A program made the position numbers and the translations under genes. Below the pieces are notes generated by a model that saw only the letters and a list, made by a program, of their open reading frames with translations, did not search any database and was not told the DNA's origin. A DNA stretch of 64,000 bases from Steroidobacteraceae bacterium (lineage in GTDB: Bacteria > Pseudomonadota > Gammaproteobacteria > Steroidobacterales > Steroidobacteraceae), in the NCBI GenBank assembly GCA_027531255.1, contig JAPZRU010000007.1:1-64000 (forward strand), read 5' to 3'. Position 1 is the first letter of the stretch. Each line of letters opens with the position of its first letter. Positions 29,510 through 35,364 of this stretch are shown in pieces.

Positions 29510-30433
29510 ATGTCCGGTCCCGCGGGGCGCCGCCCGCTCTCGCCGCACCTGAAGCGGCTGGAGGCCGAGTCGATCGCGATCTGCCGCGAGGTCGCCGCCG
29601 AGTTCGCGAACCCCGTGTTCCTGTACTCGATCGGCAAGGATTCGGGCGTGATGCTGCACGTCGCGCTGAAGGCCTTCTTTCCCGCGAGGCCGCCTTTCCC
29701 GTTCCTGCACGTCGCCAGCGGCTGGGACTTCGCGGACCTGCTGCGGCACCGTGACGCGACGGTCGCGCGCCACGGCCTGCGGCTGATCGTGCACACGAAC
29801 CCCGAGGGTGCGGCCCGCGGCATCGATCCGCTCGACTCCGGCTCGCAGCTGCATTCGCGCGTGATGCTGACCGAGGCGCTGAAGCAGGCGCTCGACGCCG
29901 GCGGCTACGACGCCGCATTCGGCGGCGGGCGGCGCGACGAGGAGAAGAGCCGCGCGAAGGAGCGCGTCTTCTCGTTCCGCTCGGCGGGCCACGCCTGGGA
30001 CCCGCGCAACCAGCGGCCGGAGCTCTGGAATCTCTGGAACACGCGCGTCCGCAAGGGCGAGACGGTCCGCGTGTTCCCGCTCTCGAACTGGACCGAGCTC
30101 GACGTCTGGGAATACACCCGCGCCGAGCGCATCCCGGTCGTGCCGCTGTACCTCGCGAAGCCGCGCCCGACGGTCGTGCGCGACGGCCTGCTGATCGTGC
30201 GCGACGACGACCGGCTGCCGCTCGCGCCCGGCGAACGCCCGGTCGTGAAGAGCGTCCGCTTCCGCTCGCTCGGCTGCTGGCCGCTGACCGCGGCGGTCGA
30301 GAGCGAGGCCCGCACCCTCGACGCGGTGGTCGCCGAAGTGCGCGCCAGCCGCCGGTCCGAGCGCGCGGGCCGGCTCGTCGACGCGGACGAGACGGCGTCG
30401 ATGGAGCGGAAGAAGCGCGAGGGCTACTTCTGA
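29510..30433 (+). CDS. cysD: Sulfate adenylyltransferase small subunit
   Basis: A 307-residue ATP-sulfurylase catalytic subunit that makes APS from ATP and sulfate. The PP-loop is [19 protein letters not shown] (about residues 42-60). [20 protein letters not shown] and [20 protein letters not shown] are family hallmarks, and the C-terminus ends as usual in [15 protein letters not shown] precedes the ATG. It forms a heterodimer with the GTPase part of CysNC, whose reading frame starts at the last bases of cysD. Confidence 0.95.
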
Positions 30434-32271
30434 AGACGCTGCTGCGCTTCCTGACCTGCGGCTCGGTGGACGACGGCAAGTCCACGCTGATCGGCCGCCT
30501 GCTGCACGACTGCCGCCACGTCCCGGACGACCAGCTGGCCCAGCTTTCGCGCGACAGCCGTCGCCACGGCACTACCGGCGACGACCTCGATCTGGCGCTG
30601 CTCCTGGACGGCCTCGAGGCCGAGCGCGAGCAGGGCATCACGATCGACGTCGCGTACCGCTTCTTCGCGACGCCGCGGCGCGCGTTCATCGTCGCGGATA
30701 CACCGGGACACGAACAGTACACGCGCAACATGGCGACCGGCGCATCCACCGCCGACGCCGCGGTGCTGCTCGTGGACGCGCGGAAAGGCCTGCTGACGCA
30801 GACGCGCCGCCACGCCTACGTCTGCTCGCTGCTCCGCATCCGCCACGTCGTGCTCGTCGTCAACAAGATCGACCTGGTCGAGTGGTCGGCCGCGCGCTTC
30901 GACGCGATCGTCGCGGATTTCCTCGGGTTCGCGGGCAAGCTCGGCTTCGAGTCCGTGCAGGCGGTGCCCGTCTGCGCGCGGCACGGCGACAACGTGGCGG
31001 CGCGCTCCCGGCGCACGCCGTGGTACCGAGGCCCGACGCTCCTGGAGCTGCTCGAGACGCTCGAGGTCGAGCACGCGCTCTCGGCGAGGCCGTTCCGCTT
31101 CCCGGTGCAGTACGTCAACCGCCCCGATGCGAGCTTCCGCGGCTACGCGGGCACCGTCGCCACCGGGCGCATCCGCCGCGGCGACCCCGTGATCGTCGCA
31201 GTCTCGGGCCGGGCCAGCACTGTCGCGCGCATCGTCACCGCGGACGGCGACCTCGACGAGGCTGCCGCCGGGGACGCGATCACGCTCGTGCTCGCGGACG
31301 AACTGGATGTCGCACGCGGTGACCTGCTGGTGAGCCCGCGCCACCGGCCCGAGGTCGCCGACCAGTTCGCCGCACACGTGATCTGGATGGGTGGGGAACC
31401 GCTGCTGCCGGGGCGCTCCTACTGGATGCGCATCGGCACGCGCAGCGTGCCCGCGAGCGTGACGACGCTGAAGTACCAGGTGGACGTGGATACGCTGCAG
31501 TACTCGCCCGCGCGCAGCCTGGCCCTCAACGGCGTCGCCTTCTGCAACCTCGCGACCGGAGCCCCCGTCGCGTTCGACGCCTACGCCGACGACCGCGCCA
31601 CGGGCGCGTTCGTCCTGATCGACCGCTACACGAACGCGACCGTCGGCGCCGGGATGATCGCCTTCGCCCTGCGCCGTGCAACCAACGTGCACCGGCAGGA
31701 GCACGCGGTCACGCGCGTGGCGCGCGCGCGCCTGAACGGCCACGGCTCCGGCATCGTGTGGTTCACCGGCCTGTCGGGTTCCGGCAAGTCCACGATCGCG
31801 AACCTCGTCGAGCAGAAGCTGCACGCGCGCGGCGTGCGCACCTACCTGCTCGATGGCGACAACGTCCGCCACGGCCTGAACCGCGACCTCGGCTTCACGG
31901 ATCCGGACCGCGTCGAGAACGTCCGTCGCGTGGGCGAGGTCGCGAAGCTGTTCGTCGACGCGGGCGTGGTCGTGCTGTGCTCGTTCATCTCGCCGTTTCG
32001 CGCCGAGCGGCGCCTGGTACGCGAACTCGTGCCGGAGGGGGACTTCGTCGAGGTCTTCGTCGACGCGCCGCTGGAGGAGTGCATCCGGCGCGATCCGAAG
32101 GGCCTCTACGCCCGCGCGAAAGCCGGCGCGATCCCGAACTTCACGGGCATCGACTCGCCGTACGAGGTGCCGGAGCGGCCCGAGATCCGGATCGACACGA
32201 CGGCCACCGGGGAGGCGGAGGCCGCGGACGCGGTACTGCGGCTGCTGGAGGCGCGGGGATTCGCGGGCTGA
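30430..32271 (+). CDS. cysNC: Bifunctional sulfate adenylyltransferase GTPase / APS kinase
   Basis: A fused protein of about 613 residues. The N-terminal EF-Tu-like GTPase (CysN) has G1 [10 protein letters not shown]3 [17 protein letters not shown] and G4 NKIDL. The C-terminal APS kinase (CysC, from about residue 437) has Walker [25 protein letters not shown] and the active Ser in [12 protein letters not shown]. The fusion occurs in several gammaproteobacteria. No ATG, GTG or TTG lies upstream of [15 protein letters not shown] in this frame, and the first GTG (30466) falls inside the P-loop. The most likely start is a CTG at 30430 that overlaps the cysD stop (CTGA), using translational coupling. 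Confidence 0.9.
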
Positions 32272-32536: not shown

Positions 32537-32986
32537 GTGCGTTTCCGGCAGTTCGTCGCCGCCGTCGTGCTGGTAGGCCAGGCCTTCGCCGCCTGGGCCG
32601 GCACGCCTGCGCGCACGCACTGCGACGAGGCGACCGCCGCACCGGCGGCGCCGGCCGTCGAAGCGGGTTCCGCCGCGGTGGATCACCCCTGCGGGATGTC
32701 GGAGCACGCTGCACCGATGTCTCCCGACGTCTCGATGTCAGGTGAAACGGCGGTCGCGACGGACTCGCCGGTCCTGCACGATGCGCCGGTTGCACCCGCC
32801 ACCCCCGACGGTGGACCCGCCACGATCAGCGGTGGCTGCGCGTTCGACTGCTGCTGCATCGCCTTCGCACTCCCGCTGGGCGCCGCCGACGTCGGCAGCC
32901 CGCCTTCCGCCGTGTCCGACGCGCGCGGAGCCCACCGCGTGCCCGCGGCCGTTCTCGCGCGCGACCTCCGACCACCGATCGCCTGA
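32537..32986 (+). CDS. Small secreted Cys/His/Met protein, CopL-like
   Basis: A 149-residue protein with a signal peptide (RQFVAAVVLVGQAFAAWAG). The mature part carries likely metal ligands: CDEATAA, DHPCGMSEHAAPMSPDVSM and a CAFDCCCIA cluster near residue 112. It ends in RPPIA, as many CopL/DUF2946-type proteins do. It is the first gene of four closely spaced plus-strand genes with a metal theme, which supports a periplasmic metal-binding role, but overall similarity to CopL is weak and the assignment tentative. The GTG start directly precedes the signal peptide. Confidence 0.6.
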   Translation: MRFRQFVAAVVLVGQAFAAWAGTPARTHCDEATAAPAAPAVEAGSAAVDHPCGMSEHAAPMSPDVSMSGETAVATDSPVLHDAPVAPATPDGGPATISGGCAFDCCCIAFALPLGAADVGSPPSAVSDARGAHRVPAAVLARDLRPPIA

Positions 32987-33068
32987 CTCTCCGTTCCCCG
33001 CGCGTCCCACGTGGACGCCCCCTCGATCGCGCGCCCGCATTCCGGGTCGCGCCTGCGGAGAGACGCTC

Positions 33069-33722
33069 GTGAGATTCCCGTCGACCTGCGCGTTCGTGCT
33101 GGGCGCCGCCCTGTTCGCCGCGCCCGCGATCGCCCGCCCGATCGCCTATGCCGACTCGACGACGCTGATGACCTCCTGGGTCCCCGACGCCGAGTTCGAG
33201 ACGCTGCTGCTCTACGCGCCGGAGTACTGGCTGTCGTTCGGCCCGACGCACATGCGCGTGCAGAGCCACGATGGTCGGCACGAGCGCCGCTACACGACGT
33301 TCCGCGTGAACGGCCTTGCGAAGCGCTGGAACCTGCCGCGTGCGCAGGCCAACGCGTTCGGGTGGGCCTCGCTCGGCGGCGTTTCCGGCACGGGGCTCCG
33401 CGGCTCGCAGACCGTGTGGAACGCGGGGCTGCAGCTCGACTACGAGACGCGTCGCGTCTACTTCTCCGCGCAGACCGACTGGTACCGCAGCCGCGACACG
33501 CGCCATCGCTTCGACCAGTTCCAGGCGGGCATCGCGCCCTACGAGCACGACGTTGACGTGGTAGCGACCTGGTTCGTCGCGCAGGCGGAGCGCTCGACCG
33601 GCGTCCTCGACGAGGGCACCGACTACTCGCTGCTGCTGCGCCTCTTCAAGGGCACGACCTGGGTCGAGGCCGGCGTGGGCGAGGGCGGCAAGCTCGTCAC
33701 CTACTTCATGTACACGTTCTGA
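33069..33722 (+). CDS. Conserved-looking secreted protein of unknown function
   Basis: A 217-residue protein I cannot name. It has a signal peptide (FVLGAALFAAPAIARP, cut near residue 24) and then alternating aromatic/polar segments suggesting beta-strands (RRYTTFRVNGLAKRWNLPRA, QLDYETRRVYFSAQTDWYRS, TTWVEAGVGEGGKLVTYFMY). It ends in Tyr-Thr-Phe, the terminal aromatic expected of an outer-membrane beta-barrel. It lies 82 bp after the CopL-like gene and 14 bp before an HMA-domain gene, so it is probably a component of the same metal cassette, perhaps a small outer-membrane channel. Confidence 0.65.
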   Translation: MRFPSTCAFVLGAALFAAPAIARPIAYADSTTLMTSWVPDAEFETLLLYAPEYWLSFGPTHMRVQSHDGRHERRYTTFRVNGLAKRWNLPRAQANAFGWASLGGVSGTGLRGSQTVWNAGLQLDYETRRVYFSAQTDWYRSRDTRHRFDQFQAGIAPYEHDVDVVATWFVAQAERSTGVLDEGTDYSLLLRLFKGTTWVEAGVGEGGKLVTYFMYTF

Positions 33723-33736
33723 TCGGGAGCAGTTCC

Positions 33737-34084
33737 ATGCGTACGCTCACCGCCTTGATCCTGTCCGTGGCGCTCGCGTGCGCCGCGCCGTTCGCCACCG
33801 CCAGCACCGCCGCCGGCGCTCGGACCGTCGAGGTCGGCGTCAACGGCCTCGTCTGCAGCTTCTGCGTGCAGGGCATCAACAAGCAGCTGCGCAAGTTCCC
33901 CGCGACGCAGGACGTGCTCGTGAGCCTCGAGCACGGGCTGGTCGCCGTGCAGGTCGCGGCCGGCAAGTCGCTCGGCGACGAGCAGATCCGCAAGGCGCTC
34001 GTCGATGCCGGCTATACGGTGACCTCGATCCAGCGCACGACGACGCCGCTCGCCGAACTGCGCGTGCGGCTGGCGAAGAAGTGA
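33737..34084 (+). CDS. Periplasmic heavy-metal-associated (HMA) domain protein
   Basis: A 115-residue secreted protein: signal peptide residues 1-23 (LTALILSVALACAAPFATAS) then one HMA/MerP-like ferredoxin fold with the metal site GLVCSFCVQGINKQL (C-x-x-C) and the C-terminal ALVDAGYTVTSI strand. MerP/CopZ-like domains pass soft metals (Hg, Cu, Zn) between partners. The CSFC motif differs from the MTCxxC of MerP and copper chaperones. Its stop codon overlaps the start of the next gene, a MerT-like membrane protein (GTGA), mirroring the MerP-MerT partnership. Confidence 0.85.
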   Translation: MRTLTALILSVALACAAPFATASTAAGARTVEVGVNGLVCSFCVQGINKQLRKFPATQDVLVSLEHGLVAVQVAAGKSLGDEQIRKALVDAGYTVTSIQRTTTPLAELRVRLAKK

Positions 34085-34539
34085 GCGCGGACGAACGGGC
34101 GCCTGCGGCGGTGGGTCGAGGCCCGATCGCGGGCATGGCCGGCAACGCCGCCGCCACCAGCGCGCTGCGTGGCAACGTGGCCGCCGCCGCGGCCGCGCTG
34201 CTGACGAGTTCCGGCACGCTGGTGTGCTGCGCGCTGCCGGCGCTGTTCGTCGCGCTCGGTGCCGGCGCCGCGCTCGCGGGGCTGGTCGGGGCGATCCCGC
34301 AGCTCGTGTGGCTGTCGCTGCACAAGGCCTGGGTGTTCGGTGCCGCCGGTGCGCTGCTGGTGCTCGCGGGCGCGCTGCAGTGGCGCGCCCGCTCGCTGCC
34401 TTGCCCGGCGGATGCCGCACTGGCGCGCCAGTGCGCCCGGCTGCGTCGGATCGGCCACGGCGTCTACGCGGCGTCCGTGGTCGTCTATGCGCTGGGTGCG
34501 GCGTTCGCCTTCGCGTTGCCCGCGCTGATGGGCGGCTGA
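34081..34539 (+). CDS. MerT/MerC-like small membrane transporter
   Basis: A 152-residue protein with three or four hydrophobic helices. The first carries a vicinal Cys pair before Pro (SGTLVCCALPALFVALGAG, about residues 41-59), as TM1 of MerT/MerC mercury importers does. A second loop has Cys residues (LPCPADAALARQCARLRR) that could take metal on the other face. The GTG start overlaps the HMA gene stop. By analogy the HMA protein would hand a metal to the CC motif for transport across the inner membrane; the metal is not known, and no MerR or MerA is nearby. Confidence 0.75.
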   Translation: MSADERAPAAVGRGPIAGMAGNAAATSALRGNVAAAAAALLTSSGTLVCCALPALFVALGAGAALAGLVGAIPQLVWLSLHKAWVFGAAGALLVLAGALQWRARSLPCPADAALARQCARLRRIGHGVYAASVVVYALGAAFAFALPALMGG

Positions 34540-34671: not shown

Positions 34672-35364
34672 GTGGCTTCCAGGTCCGTCATCGTCACCGG
34701 CGCCTTCGGCACCCTCGGACGCGCCGTCGTCCGGCGTCTCGCCGCGGCAGGCTGGCGCGTCGCCGCCGTCGACGTCTCGCCCTTGCCGCGTGGCGAACCG
34801 CTGCCGGAGGAGGTGTTCCCGGTCGGCGGTGTCGATCTCGGCAGTCTCGCGGCCGCCGAGGCCGGCGTCGCGCGCGTGGTCGAGCGGTTCGGCCGGCTCG
34901 ACGCGCTCGTGAACGTGGCGGGCGGGTTCACGTGGCAGACGCTGGCGGACGGCGACGTGGACGCGTGGGACCGCATGTACGCGGTGAACCTGCGTACCGC
35001 CGTCGTCGCTACGAAGGCCGCGCTGCCGCACCTGCTCGCCGCCGGCGACGCGCGCGTCGTCAACGTGGGCGCGGGCGCGGCCAGCGCGAAGGCGGCCGCC
35101 GGCATGGGTGCCTACACTGCCTCGAAGACCGGCGTGCAGAAGCTGACCGAGAGCCTGAGCGCGGAGCTGAAGGACCGCGGCGTGAACGTCAACGCGGTGC
35201 TGCCGGGCACGATCGACACGCCGCAGAACCGTGCCGACATGCCGGACGCGGACACCACCCGCTGGGTCGCGCCGGAGGCGCTCGCCGACGTGATCCTGTT
35301 CCTGCTCTCGCCCGCGGCGCGCGCGGTGACGGGCGCGGCGATCCCGGTCTACGGGCGCGGCTGA
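34672..35364 (+). CDS. Short-chain dehydrogenase/reductase
   Basis: A 230-residue classical-type SDR: cofactor motif VTGAFGTLGRAVVRRL, NVAGGF, and YTASKTGVQKL (Tyr and Lys of the active site). The usual catalytic Ser position reads VGAGAASAKA, so a Ser is nearby but shifted. Short for the family (about 250). The C-terminus GAAIPVYGRG matches SDRs without an extended tail. It starts an SDR-VOC-SDR series on the plus strand; a TAGACT box at 34636-34641 could be the -10 element. Confidence 0.87.
   Translation: MASRSVIVTGAFGTLGRAVVRRLAAAGWRVAAVDVSPLPRGEPLPEEVFPVGGVDLGSLAAAEAGVARVVERFGRLDALVNVAGGFTWQTLADGDVDAWDRMYAVNLRTAVVATKAALPHLLAAGDARVVNVGAGAASAKAAAGMGAYTASKTGVQKLTESLSAELKDRGVNVNAVLPGTIDTPQNRADMPDADTTRWVAPEALADVILFLLSPAARAVTGAAIPVYGRG

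What the first reader, a model, noticed from the sequence alone, without database searches (positions are those of the whole stretch)
32537..34539. Four-gene envelope metal cassette with a MerP/MerT-like core
A secreted Cys/His/Met-rich protein, a possible small outer-membrane barrel, a periplasmic HMA protein with CSFC and an overlapping CC-motif membrane protein stand in order. This traces a route from the outer membrane to the inner membrane without a MerR, MerA or P-type ATPase. It may be a metal import or trafficking system that has not been described as a unit.
Basis: partly seen in the sequence, partly recalled or inferred. Interest (0 to 1): 0.55.

Follow-up and report, generated by a model that had tools for sequence, protein, structure and literature searches.

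The report
Copper-switched MerT/MerP-like envelope cassette
A small set of bacterial genes that looks like a borrowed mercury-transport pair plus an outer-membrane-type protein travels together in scattered bacteria and is probably switched by copper, in this genome perhaps by a short protein that senses copper while it is still being made.

Summary
The four genes are real. ORF2 (217 aa, no known family), the exported HMA protein and the MerT-like membrane protein stand together in 18 of 18 judgeable loci, in at least two classes of the phylum. ORF1 is probably not a structural part: it fits the CutF/CopL/CruR kind of copper-sensing leader protein (signal-like start, CxxxC, Pro-Pro near the C-terminus 40 residues on, 82 nt before ORF2), though it scores below the curated models. 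A stem-loop over the ORF2 ribosome site, as in cutF-cutO, is only weakly supported. In 8 related loci a CsoR-box palindrome sits at the ORF2 start instead, with a Cu-type CsoR gene beside the cassette in 7. The two switches do not coincide (9 against 8 loci). So the cassette is probably copper-controlled, likely copper-induced. 12 of 16 carrier genomes have no copper P-type ATPase over cut-off (class: 46 of 203), which leans towards copper relief rather than import. Metal, direction of transport and the barrel fold of ORF2 are not shown; two structure predictions failed. Seven literature searches showed no description of the unit.

The parts
32537..32986 (+). ORF1, 149 aa: putative CutF/CopL/CruR-type copper-sensing exported leader protein (uORF); CxxxC at residues 101-105, C-terminal LRPPIA
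   Evidence: motif rules from PMC9973294 and PMC9426467 (passages)
32987..32994 (+). 5' arm of a predicted 8-bp stem directly after the ORF1 stop codon (CTCTCCGT)
   Evidence: for the window alone not better than shuffles (p 0.20; p 0.27)
33055..33062 (+). 3' arm (GCGGAGAG) holding the likely Shine-Dalgarno sequence of ORF2
33069..33722 (+). ORF2, 217 aa: exported protein with outer-membrane-barrel-like C-terminus; no Pfam or NCBIfam match
   Evidence: structure models unusable
33737..34084 (+). ORF3, 115 aa: exported HMA (MerP/CopZ-like) protein, motif GLVCSFC
34081..34539 (+). ORF4, 152 aa: MerT-like membrane protein, CC at 49-50 and Cys 108/118, overlaps ORF3

Best explanation
A copper-responsive envelope cassette of three working proteins (ORF2 probably in the outer membrane, ORF3 a periplasmic Cu(I) chaperone, ORF4 a MerT-like inner-membrane carrier) behind a cis-acting copper switch (ORF1). 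Proposed working: ORF1 is translated and exported; when copper meets its CxxxC motif, the ribosome pauses at the terminal Pro-Pro, which opens RNA structure over the ribosome site of ORF2, and ORF2-ORF3-ORF4 are made. In related genomes a CsoR repressor at the ORF2 start does the same job. The three proteins then pass Cu(I) by thiol exchange between inner membrane, periplasm and outer membrane, most likely to relieve copper excess. Shown by computation: the conserved unit, the motifs and their spacing, the exclusive choice between two kinds of copper switch. Inferred: copper as the metal, the switch mechanism, the direction of transport, the outer-membrane place of ORF2.
For: Unit conserved in 18 of 18 judgeable loci. 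ORF1 kind: PP at 2-7 residues from the end in 10 of 10, CxxxC in 8 of 10, spacing 39-45 in those 8; CopL model matched at E up to 1 by 6 of 10, best 4.4e-8. Duplex between ORF1 stop region and ORF2 ribosome site: joint p 1.4e-4 over 9 uORF loci against 0.62, or 0.44 with two start sites corrected, over 10 loci without adjacent uORF; ribosome-site pairing against shuffles, joint p 0.002. CsoR box TACCC-N5-GGGTA: 8 sites in 249,682 bp of 19 loci, all 8 at the ORF2 start or promoter, 0 in the 9 uORF loci; published boxes in PMC3902906 and PMC5057107 (passages). CsoR gene in 7 of 8 box genomes, beside the cassette; 5 of these aligned, nearest solved relatives are copper CsoRs and Cys-His-Cys aligns, a sixth read. 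Copper neighbours: CusF, multicopper oxidase, OEP in L025, RND and MFP in L010. Cu-ATPase over cut-off in 4 of 16 carriers against 157 of 203 in the class.
Against: The window's ORF1 scores only E 0.11 with the CopL model (13.2 of 40 bits) and matches no Pfam model. Its own stem is not better than shuffles (p 0.20, 0.27), L012 is worse than chance (p 0.95), in L010 the predicted pairing is local, and mean ribosome-site pairing does not differ from the 10 control loci (0.81 against 0.68, p 0.12). I had looked at the folds before choosing the test segments. RPP is not RAPP; L007 has EPP and L027 GPPP; L011 and L027 lack CxxxC. CruR works the other way (copper represses), so induction is inferred. 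MerT is known as an importer (recalled). L027 lies beside genes that look like zinc uptake (by eye). L025 and L026 have neither switch adjacent. G198 has a box but no CsoR gene found. No evidence of metal binding.
Confidence: 0.57

Rival explanations
1. Copper import system: ORF2 lets copper in, ORF3 picks it up, ORF4 carries it to the cytoplasm as MerT does with mercury; ORF1 is a CruR-type leader that shuts the operon down when copper is plentiful.
For: MerT/MerP import mercury (recalled); CruR heads a copper-repressed TonB-transporter operon (PMC9426467; PMC12914433; passages); a CruR-like CxxC/RAPP frame lies before a TonB receptor next to the cassette in L028, and TonB receptors neighbour it in L028 and L035 (Pfam) and L033 (by eye).
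Against: CsoR, found with its box in relatives, is relieved by copper (PMC3902906, PMC5057107), so expression would rise with copper; ORF1 has CxxxC as CutF, not CXXC with RAPP; 12 of 16 carriers have no copper ATPase over cut-off that would use cytoplasmic copper.
Confidence: 0.2
2. Mercury or another soft metal (Ag, Hg, Zn) is the real cargo; the cassette is a cut-down mer module whose metal is decided by the host's other genes.
For: MerT and MerP models match family members weakly; [quoted passage not shown] L027 lies next to genes that look like ZnuABC/Zur (by eye) and L012 next to a MerR.
Against: No MerA over cut-off in the window genome (not searched in the relatives); CsoR box and Cys-His-Cys CsoR point to Cu(I); copper neighbours in L025.
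Confidence: 0.15
3. ORF1 is a true periplasmic or secreted metal-binding protein, and works as a copper sponge rather than a leader.
For: Signal-like N-terminus, 6 Cys, 5 His and 3 Met; weak stem-loop evidence for the window.
Against: Pro-Pro at the end in 10 of 10 and a near-constant Cys-to-Pro spacing in 8 have no obvious use in a sponge; absent where a CsoR box is present in 8 loci; CutF was not detectable in cells (PMC9973294).
Confidence: 0.13

Closest known systems
MerP-MerT of mercury resistance (mer) operons
   Same: Exported HMA protein with CxxC; small membrane protein with CC in helix 1 and a second cysteine pair in a loop; adjacent genes
   Different: No MerA or MerR in the window cassette, an outer-membrane-type protein is added, copper-type switches; loop cysteines 9 residues apart here against about 5 in MerT (recalled); window ORF4 matches no MerT model
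CutF-CutO / CopL-CopA / CruR-CrtA leader-controlled copper operons (PMC9973294, PMC9426467, PMC12914433; passages)
   Same: Small exported first frame with Cys motif and C-terminal Pro-Pro, short gap to the next gene
   Different: Downstream genes are ORF2-HMA-MerT. PMC9973294 section 11 names OEP, RND, CusB, CusF, TonB and PCuAC neighbours; the term MerT is not in the main text of PMC9426467, 'mercur' not in PMC9973294, 'Mer' and 'HMA' not in PMC12914433
CsoR-controlled copZA/cueA copper efflux operons
   Same: In 8 relatives the same box, in 7 of them a Cu-type CsoR gene
   Different: The target is ORF2-HMA-MerT, and those 8 genomes have no copper ATPase over cut-off
Sister HMA-MerT loci with another barrel-like protein
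   Same: 37 further genomes of 369 carry a related MerT; 19 of their loci were read, and 12 of these have a ~270 aa barrel-type protein (Phenol_MetA_deg match in 7 of the 10 scanned) beside it
   Different: ORF2 is not shown to be related to that barrel (hhalign probability 7.8); thioredoxin-like, CcdA-like and MerR genes are often near (by eye)

Membership tests
CutF/CopL/CruR-like (DUF2946-related) copper leader proteins | Under 150 aa, N-terminal export signal, PP within the last 15 residues, next gene on same strand within 1000 nt (filter of PMC9973294) | tested here: met
   149 aa, PP at 146-147, gap 82 nt; signal judged by eye
CutF/CopL/CruR-like (DUF2946-related) copper leader proteins | Cys motif CxxxC (CutF) or CXXC (CruR) about 45 residues before the C-terminal motif | tested here: met
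   CAFDC, 40 residues before PP; 39-45 in 8 of 10, the window included
CutF/CopL/CruR-like (DUF2946-related) copper leader proteins | Match to PF11162 or to the CopL model over the curated cut-off | tested here: not met
   window CopL 13.2 of 40 bits, no DUF2946; of the 10, 6 match CopL at E up to 1 (best 4.4e-8) and 1 DUF2946 (E 0.011)
CutF/CopL/CruR-like (DUF2946-related) copper leader proteins | Stem-loop hiding the ribosome site of the next gene (CutF) | tested here: inconclusive
   joint p 1.4e-4 and 0.002 over 9 loci against shuffles, but window alone 0.20 and 0.27, and pairing not different from control loci (p 0.12)
CutF/CopL/CruR-like (DUF2946-related) copper leader proteins | Copper-dependent control of the next gene in cis | not testable with these tools
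   needs a reporter assay
MerT | CC in helix 1 and second cysteine pair in the cytoplasmic loop (recalled) | tested here: met
   C49, C50 and C118 invariant, C108 in 15 of 16
MerT | Match to PF02411 | tested here: inconclusive
   window no match; 8 of 16 members match at E up to 1, best 1.1e-6
MerP | Exported HMA protein with metal-binding CxxC | tested here: met
   GLVCSFC; HMA E 2.2e-4 but below cut-off; MerP model 24.5 of 92.55 bits
mer operon | MerA mercuric reductase | tested here: not met
   no match over cut-off in own genome, 9 weaker ones
CsoR regulon | CsoR gene and CsoR box at the operon | tested here: not met
   none in the window (box) or its genome (gene); box in 8 relatives, gene in 7
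Outer-membrane beta-barrel (ORF2) | Export signal, alternating C-terminal strand ending in an aromatic residue (recalled) | tested here: met
   F/Y last in 18 of 19 (L in one); hydrophobic at -1, -3, -5 in 19, 18, 19 of 19 and at -2, -4, -6 in 2, 18, 4 of 19, so -4 breaks the alternation
Outer-membrane beta-barrel (ORF2) | Confident barrel model or solved relative | tested here: inconclusive
   pLDDT 36.8 and 37.4, no PDB match; one of 17 members matches PagL, E 3.6e-4

The most novel reading that the evidence does not exclude
ORF2-HMA-MerT is an ATPase-free copper efflux route that spans the envelope, with a MerT-like protein working outward, and it stands in for CopA-type ATPases in scattered proteobacteria. 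It has been placed more than once under either a CsoR repressor or a nascent-chain copper sensor.
Probability: 0.3. Interest if true: 0.8.

Novelty: new variant of a known kind. Interest (0 to 1): 0.6.

Why it matters
How bacteria without a copper ATPase deal with copper is open. A conserved three-protein set under two interchangeable copper switches gives a candidate that can be tested, extends MerT/MerP-like proteins beyond mercury, and would add a new kind of target to the nascent-chain copper sensors.

Tried and rejected
Structure prediction of ORF2 with 3 sequences, full length and mature: pLDDT 36.8 and 37.4, so no fold search was made. PDB profile search of ORF2 and of MerT: nothing useful. 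Plasmid search with ORF2: nothing. Viral-contig scans with ORF2 alignments: error for A7, no relative for A9, A10, A1; with MerT one locus, L042. L009 dropped as a hit inside a 1266-residue SMC-like protein (name by eye). A stricter CsoR-box pattern with longer arms gave 0; the reported one (spacer 4-5 allowed) was set after seeing loose matches. Homology of ORF2 with the sister barrel: not shown. Rfam: nothing. Sigma-70 and terminator scans: nothing. The class-wide MerT search cannot show that MerT tracks ORF2, because the profile A5 was built from those very sequences; I make no such claim.

Papers: passages only of PMC9973294 (plus its section 11 in full), PMC9426467, PMC12992588, PMC12914433, PMC3902906, PMC5057107; all others only as search listings. 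Searches that looked for the unit; for the switches. The library holds open-licence papers only.

Full report
The observation. ORF2, ORF3 and ORF4 have strong third-position G+C (0.94, 0.95, 0.90), ORF1 less (0.83). Upstream stand genes that I read by eye as cysD (29510-30433) and cysNC (30466-32271), downstream an SDR-type gene at 34672.

The unit is conserved. ORF2 relatives were found in 3 of 196 genomes of the order and 12 of 369 of the class, own genome included both times, in 4 of 398 of the phylum, 2 of them new and from outside the class, and in 2 named contigs (Lysobacteraceae and Pseudoxanthomonas MAGs). With the window and a second copy in G041 these are 19 loci. In 18 of them HMA and MerT-like genes follow ORF2 on the same strand; the nineteenth, L035, is cut by the contig end. 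In L033 a further frame stands between HMA and MerT. So the set is patchy but tightly linked.

What the proteins are. ORF3 is an exported HMA protein; CxxC is invariant in the 16 aligned, and solved relatives include copper ATPase domains, CopZ and MerP. ORF4 keeps CC and a second Cys pair, and 8 of 16 members match Pfam MerT. ORF2 has no family; one of 17 members matches PagL at 3.6e-4. Its last residue is F or Y in 18 of 19; positions -1, -3, -5 are hydrophobic in 19, 18 and 19 of 19, -2 and -6 in 2 and 4, but -4 in 18. This is the mark of an outer-membrane barrel (recalled rule), yet both models failed.

ORF1 looks like a switch. Ten ORF1-type proteins were picked by eye: nine directly before ORF2 and one in L025 at the head of a longer gene row with outer-membrane efflux, multicopper oxidase and CusF genes. 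They are poorly alike (9-37% identity to the window). PP lies 2-7 residues from the end in 10 of 10, R precedes it in 8 of 10, CxxxC is in 8 of 10, and the gap between the two is 40, 40, 40, 39, 39, 39, 45 and 43 residues. In shuffles of each sequence both motifs occur together in 0.2 to 8.7%, so a single case proves little; the shared spacing is the stronger point, although L010-L012 are close relatives. CutF of Rhodobacter has CxxxC, a C-terminal Pro-rich motif 45 residues on, and a stem-loop over the next ribosome site (PMC9973294); CruR has CXXC and RAPP, 45 residues apart (PMC9426467). C-terminal RAPP-like motifs are a known arrest signal (PMC12992588); RPP as here is not tested there in the passages I saw.

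The stem-loop is the weakest link. The ORF1-ORF2 gaps are 54-82 nt, and the ORF2 ribosome site is predicted mostly paired (mean probability 0.67-1.00) in the nine. A duplex test between the ORF1 stop region and the ribosome site gives p 0.20 (window), 0.11 (L007), 0.006 (L008), 0.26 (L010), 0.008 (L011), 0.95 (L012), 0.25 (L027), 0.13 (L029) and 0.004 (L040), jointly 1.4e-4; 10 loci without adjacent uORF give 0.62, or 0.44 after two start sites were corrected. Pairing against shuffled upstream sequence gives jointly 0.002, window 0.27. But the ten control loci are nearly as paired (0.68 against 0.81, p 0.12), partly perhaps because a palindrome lies there. So a CutF-like stem-loop is possible, not shown.

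The other switch. In eight loci without ORF1 (L028, L030-L035, L041) the palindrome TACCC-N5-GGGTA lies across the ORF2 start codon (seven) or 61 nt before it (L041). It occurs nowhere else in the 249,682 bases of the 19 loci; about 0.3 would be expected by shuffling, where 18 kb of the window was shuffled. It fits published CsoR boxes (TAC-X9-GTA, PMC3902906; TATACCC-N5-GGGTATA, PMC5057107). CsoR genes are found in 7 of these 8 genomes, beside the cassette; G198 has none. Five were aligned: the nearest solved proteins are copper CsoRs and Cys-His-Cys is kept; NCBIfam's nearest models are RicR, FrmR and RcnR, all far below cut-off for the member shown. Of the other eight genomes searched, G041 and G099 have a CsoR gene, on other contigs; the genomes of L007 and L008 were not searched. 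On a tree of ORF2 the three labels need 4 changes at least; in none of 200 bootstrap trees does either switch label change only once, but well-supported branches alone force only 2 changes for the uORF and 1 for CsoR, and L041 and L025 are long branches. So the switches were probably exchanged more than once.

Metal and direction. CusF, multicopper oxidase and OEP neighbours in L025 and RND and MFP pumps in L010 point to copper. CsoR is relieved by copper and copper-loaded CutF promotes its target, so induction is expected; CruR is the contrary example. Copper ATPases (TIGR01511 over cut-off) are in 4 of 16 carriers, and a fifth, G041, is split at contig ends with 389 of 397 bits. The class figure is 157 of 203. 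With the 8 carriers of that draw taken out, 4 of 16 against 155 of 195 gives p 1.4e-5; but carriers are often small genomes, two are from outside the class, and I could not match by size. None of the 8 box genomes (84-100% complete) has a copper ATPase or a CusA-type pump over cut-off, though all 16 carriers have lower-scoring or better RND relatives. The window genome has two copper ATPases and one CusA-type pump over cut-off. This makes copper relief the better guess, with MerT working outward or as a hand-over point, but nothing here measures direction.

A parallel. In the class, 37 further genomes carry a related MerT. Of 19 such loci read (L054-L072), 12 have a ~270 aa barrel-type protein beside the pair, 3 (L054, L065, L069) another long exported protein, L072 a third kind, and L057, L062 and L067 showed none in the stretch held (by eye; my gene caller missed HMA or MerT in several). 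MerT-like proteins with an outer-membrane-type partner may thus have arisen more than once.

Limits. No metal binding, expression or localisation was tested. Signal peptides and many neighbour names were judged by eye. MerT biology is recalled.

Noticed in passing
L054-L072: 37 of 369 class genomes carry a sister MerT; in 12 of 19 loci read it stands near a ~270 aa Phenol_MetA_deg-type barrel, often with thioredoxin-like, CcdA/DsbD-like and MerR genes (by eye).
   Followed up: partly
L042:5013-5387: A MerT-like gene of this family on a 129 kb IMG/VR viral contig; no HMA gene was called near it.
   Followed up: no
L028:3745-3975 (-): CruR-like frame (CxxC, C-terminal RAPP) directly before a TonB receptor gene and next to the cassette: perhaps a copper-repressed import gene beside a copper-induced cassette.
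   Followed up: no
L026:4956-5030, L032:4860-4935, L025:4100-4176: tRNA genes lie within 100 nt of the cassette in 3 of 7 loci scanned (of 19), perhaps insertion sites.
   Followed up: partly
L011, last codons of ORF1: The Pro-Pro codons read CCT CCT and are predicted to pair with the ORF2 ribosome site, so a ribosome stalled there would free it. L029 has the same codons but another predicted pairing.
   Followed up: partly
L028, L030-L035: ORF2 start: The CsoR box overlaps the ATG, which may explain the shared MG start (MGI in six, MGM in L031) of these ORF2 proteins and hints at leaderless or nearly leaderless mRNA.
   Followed up: no
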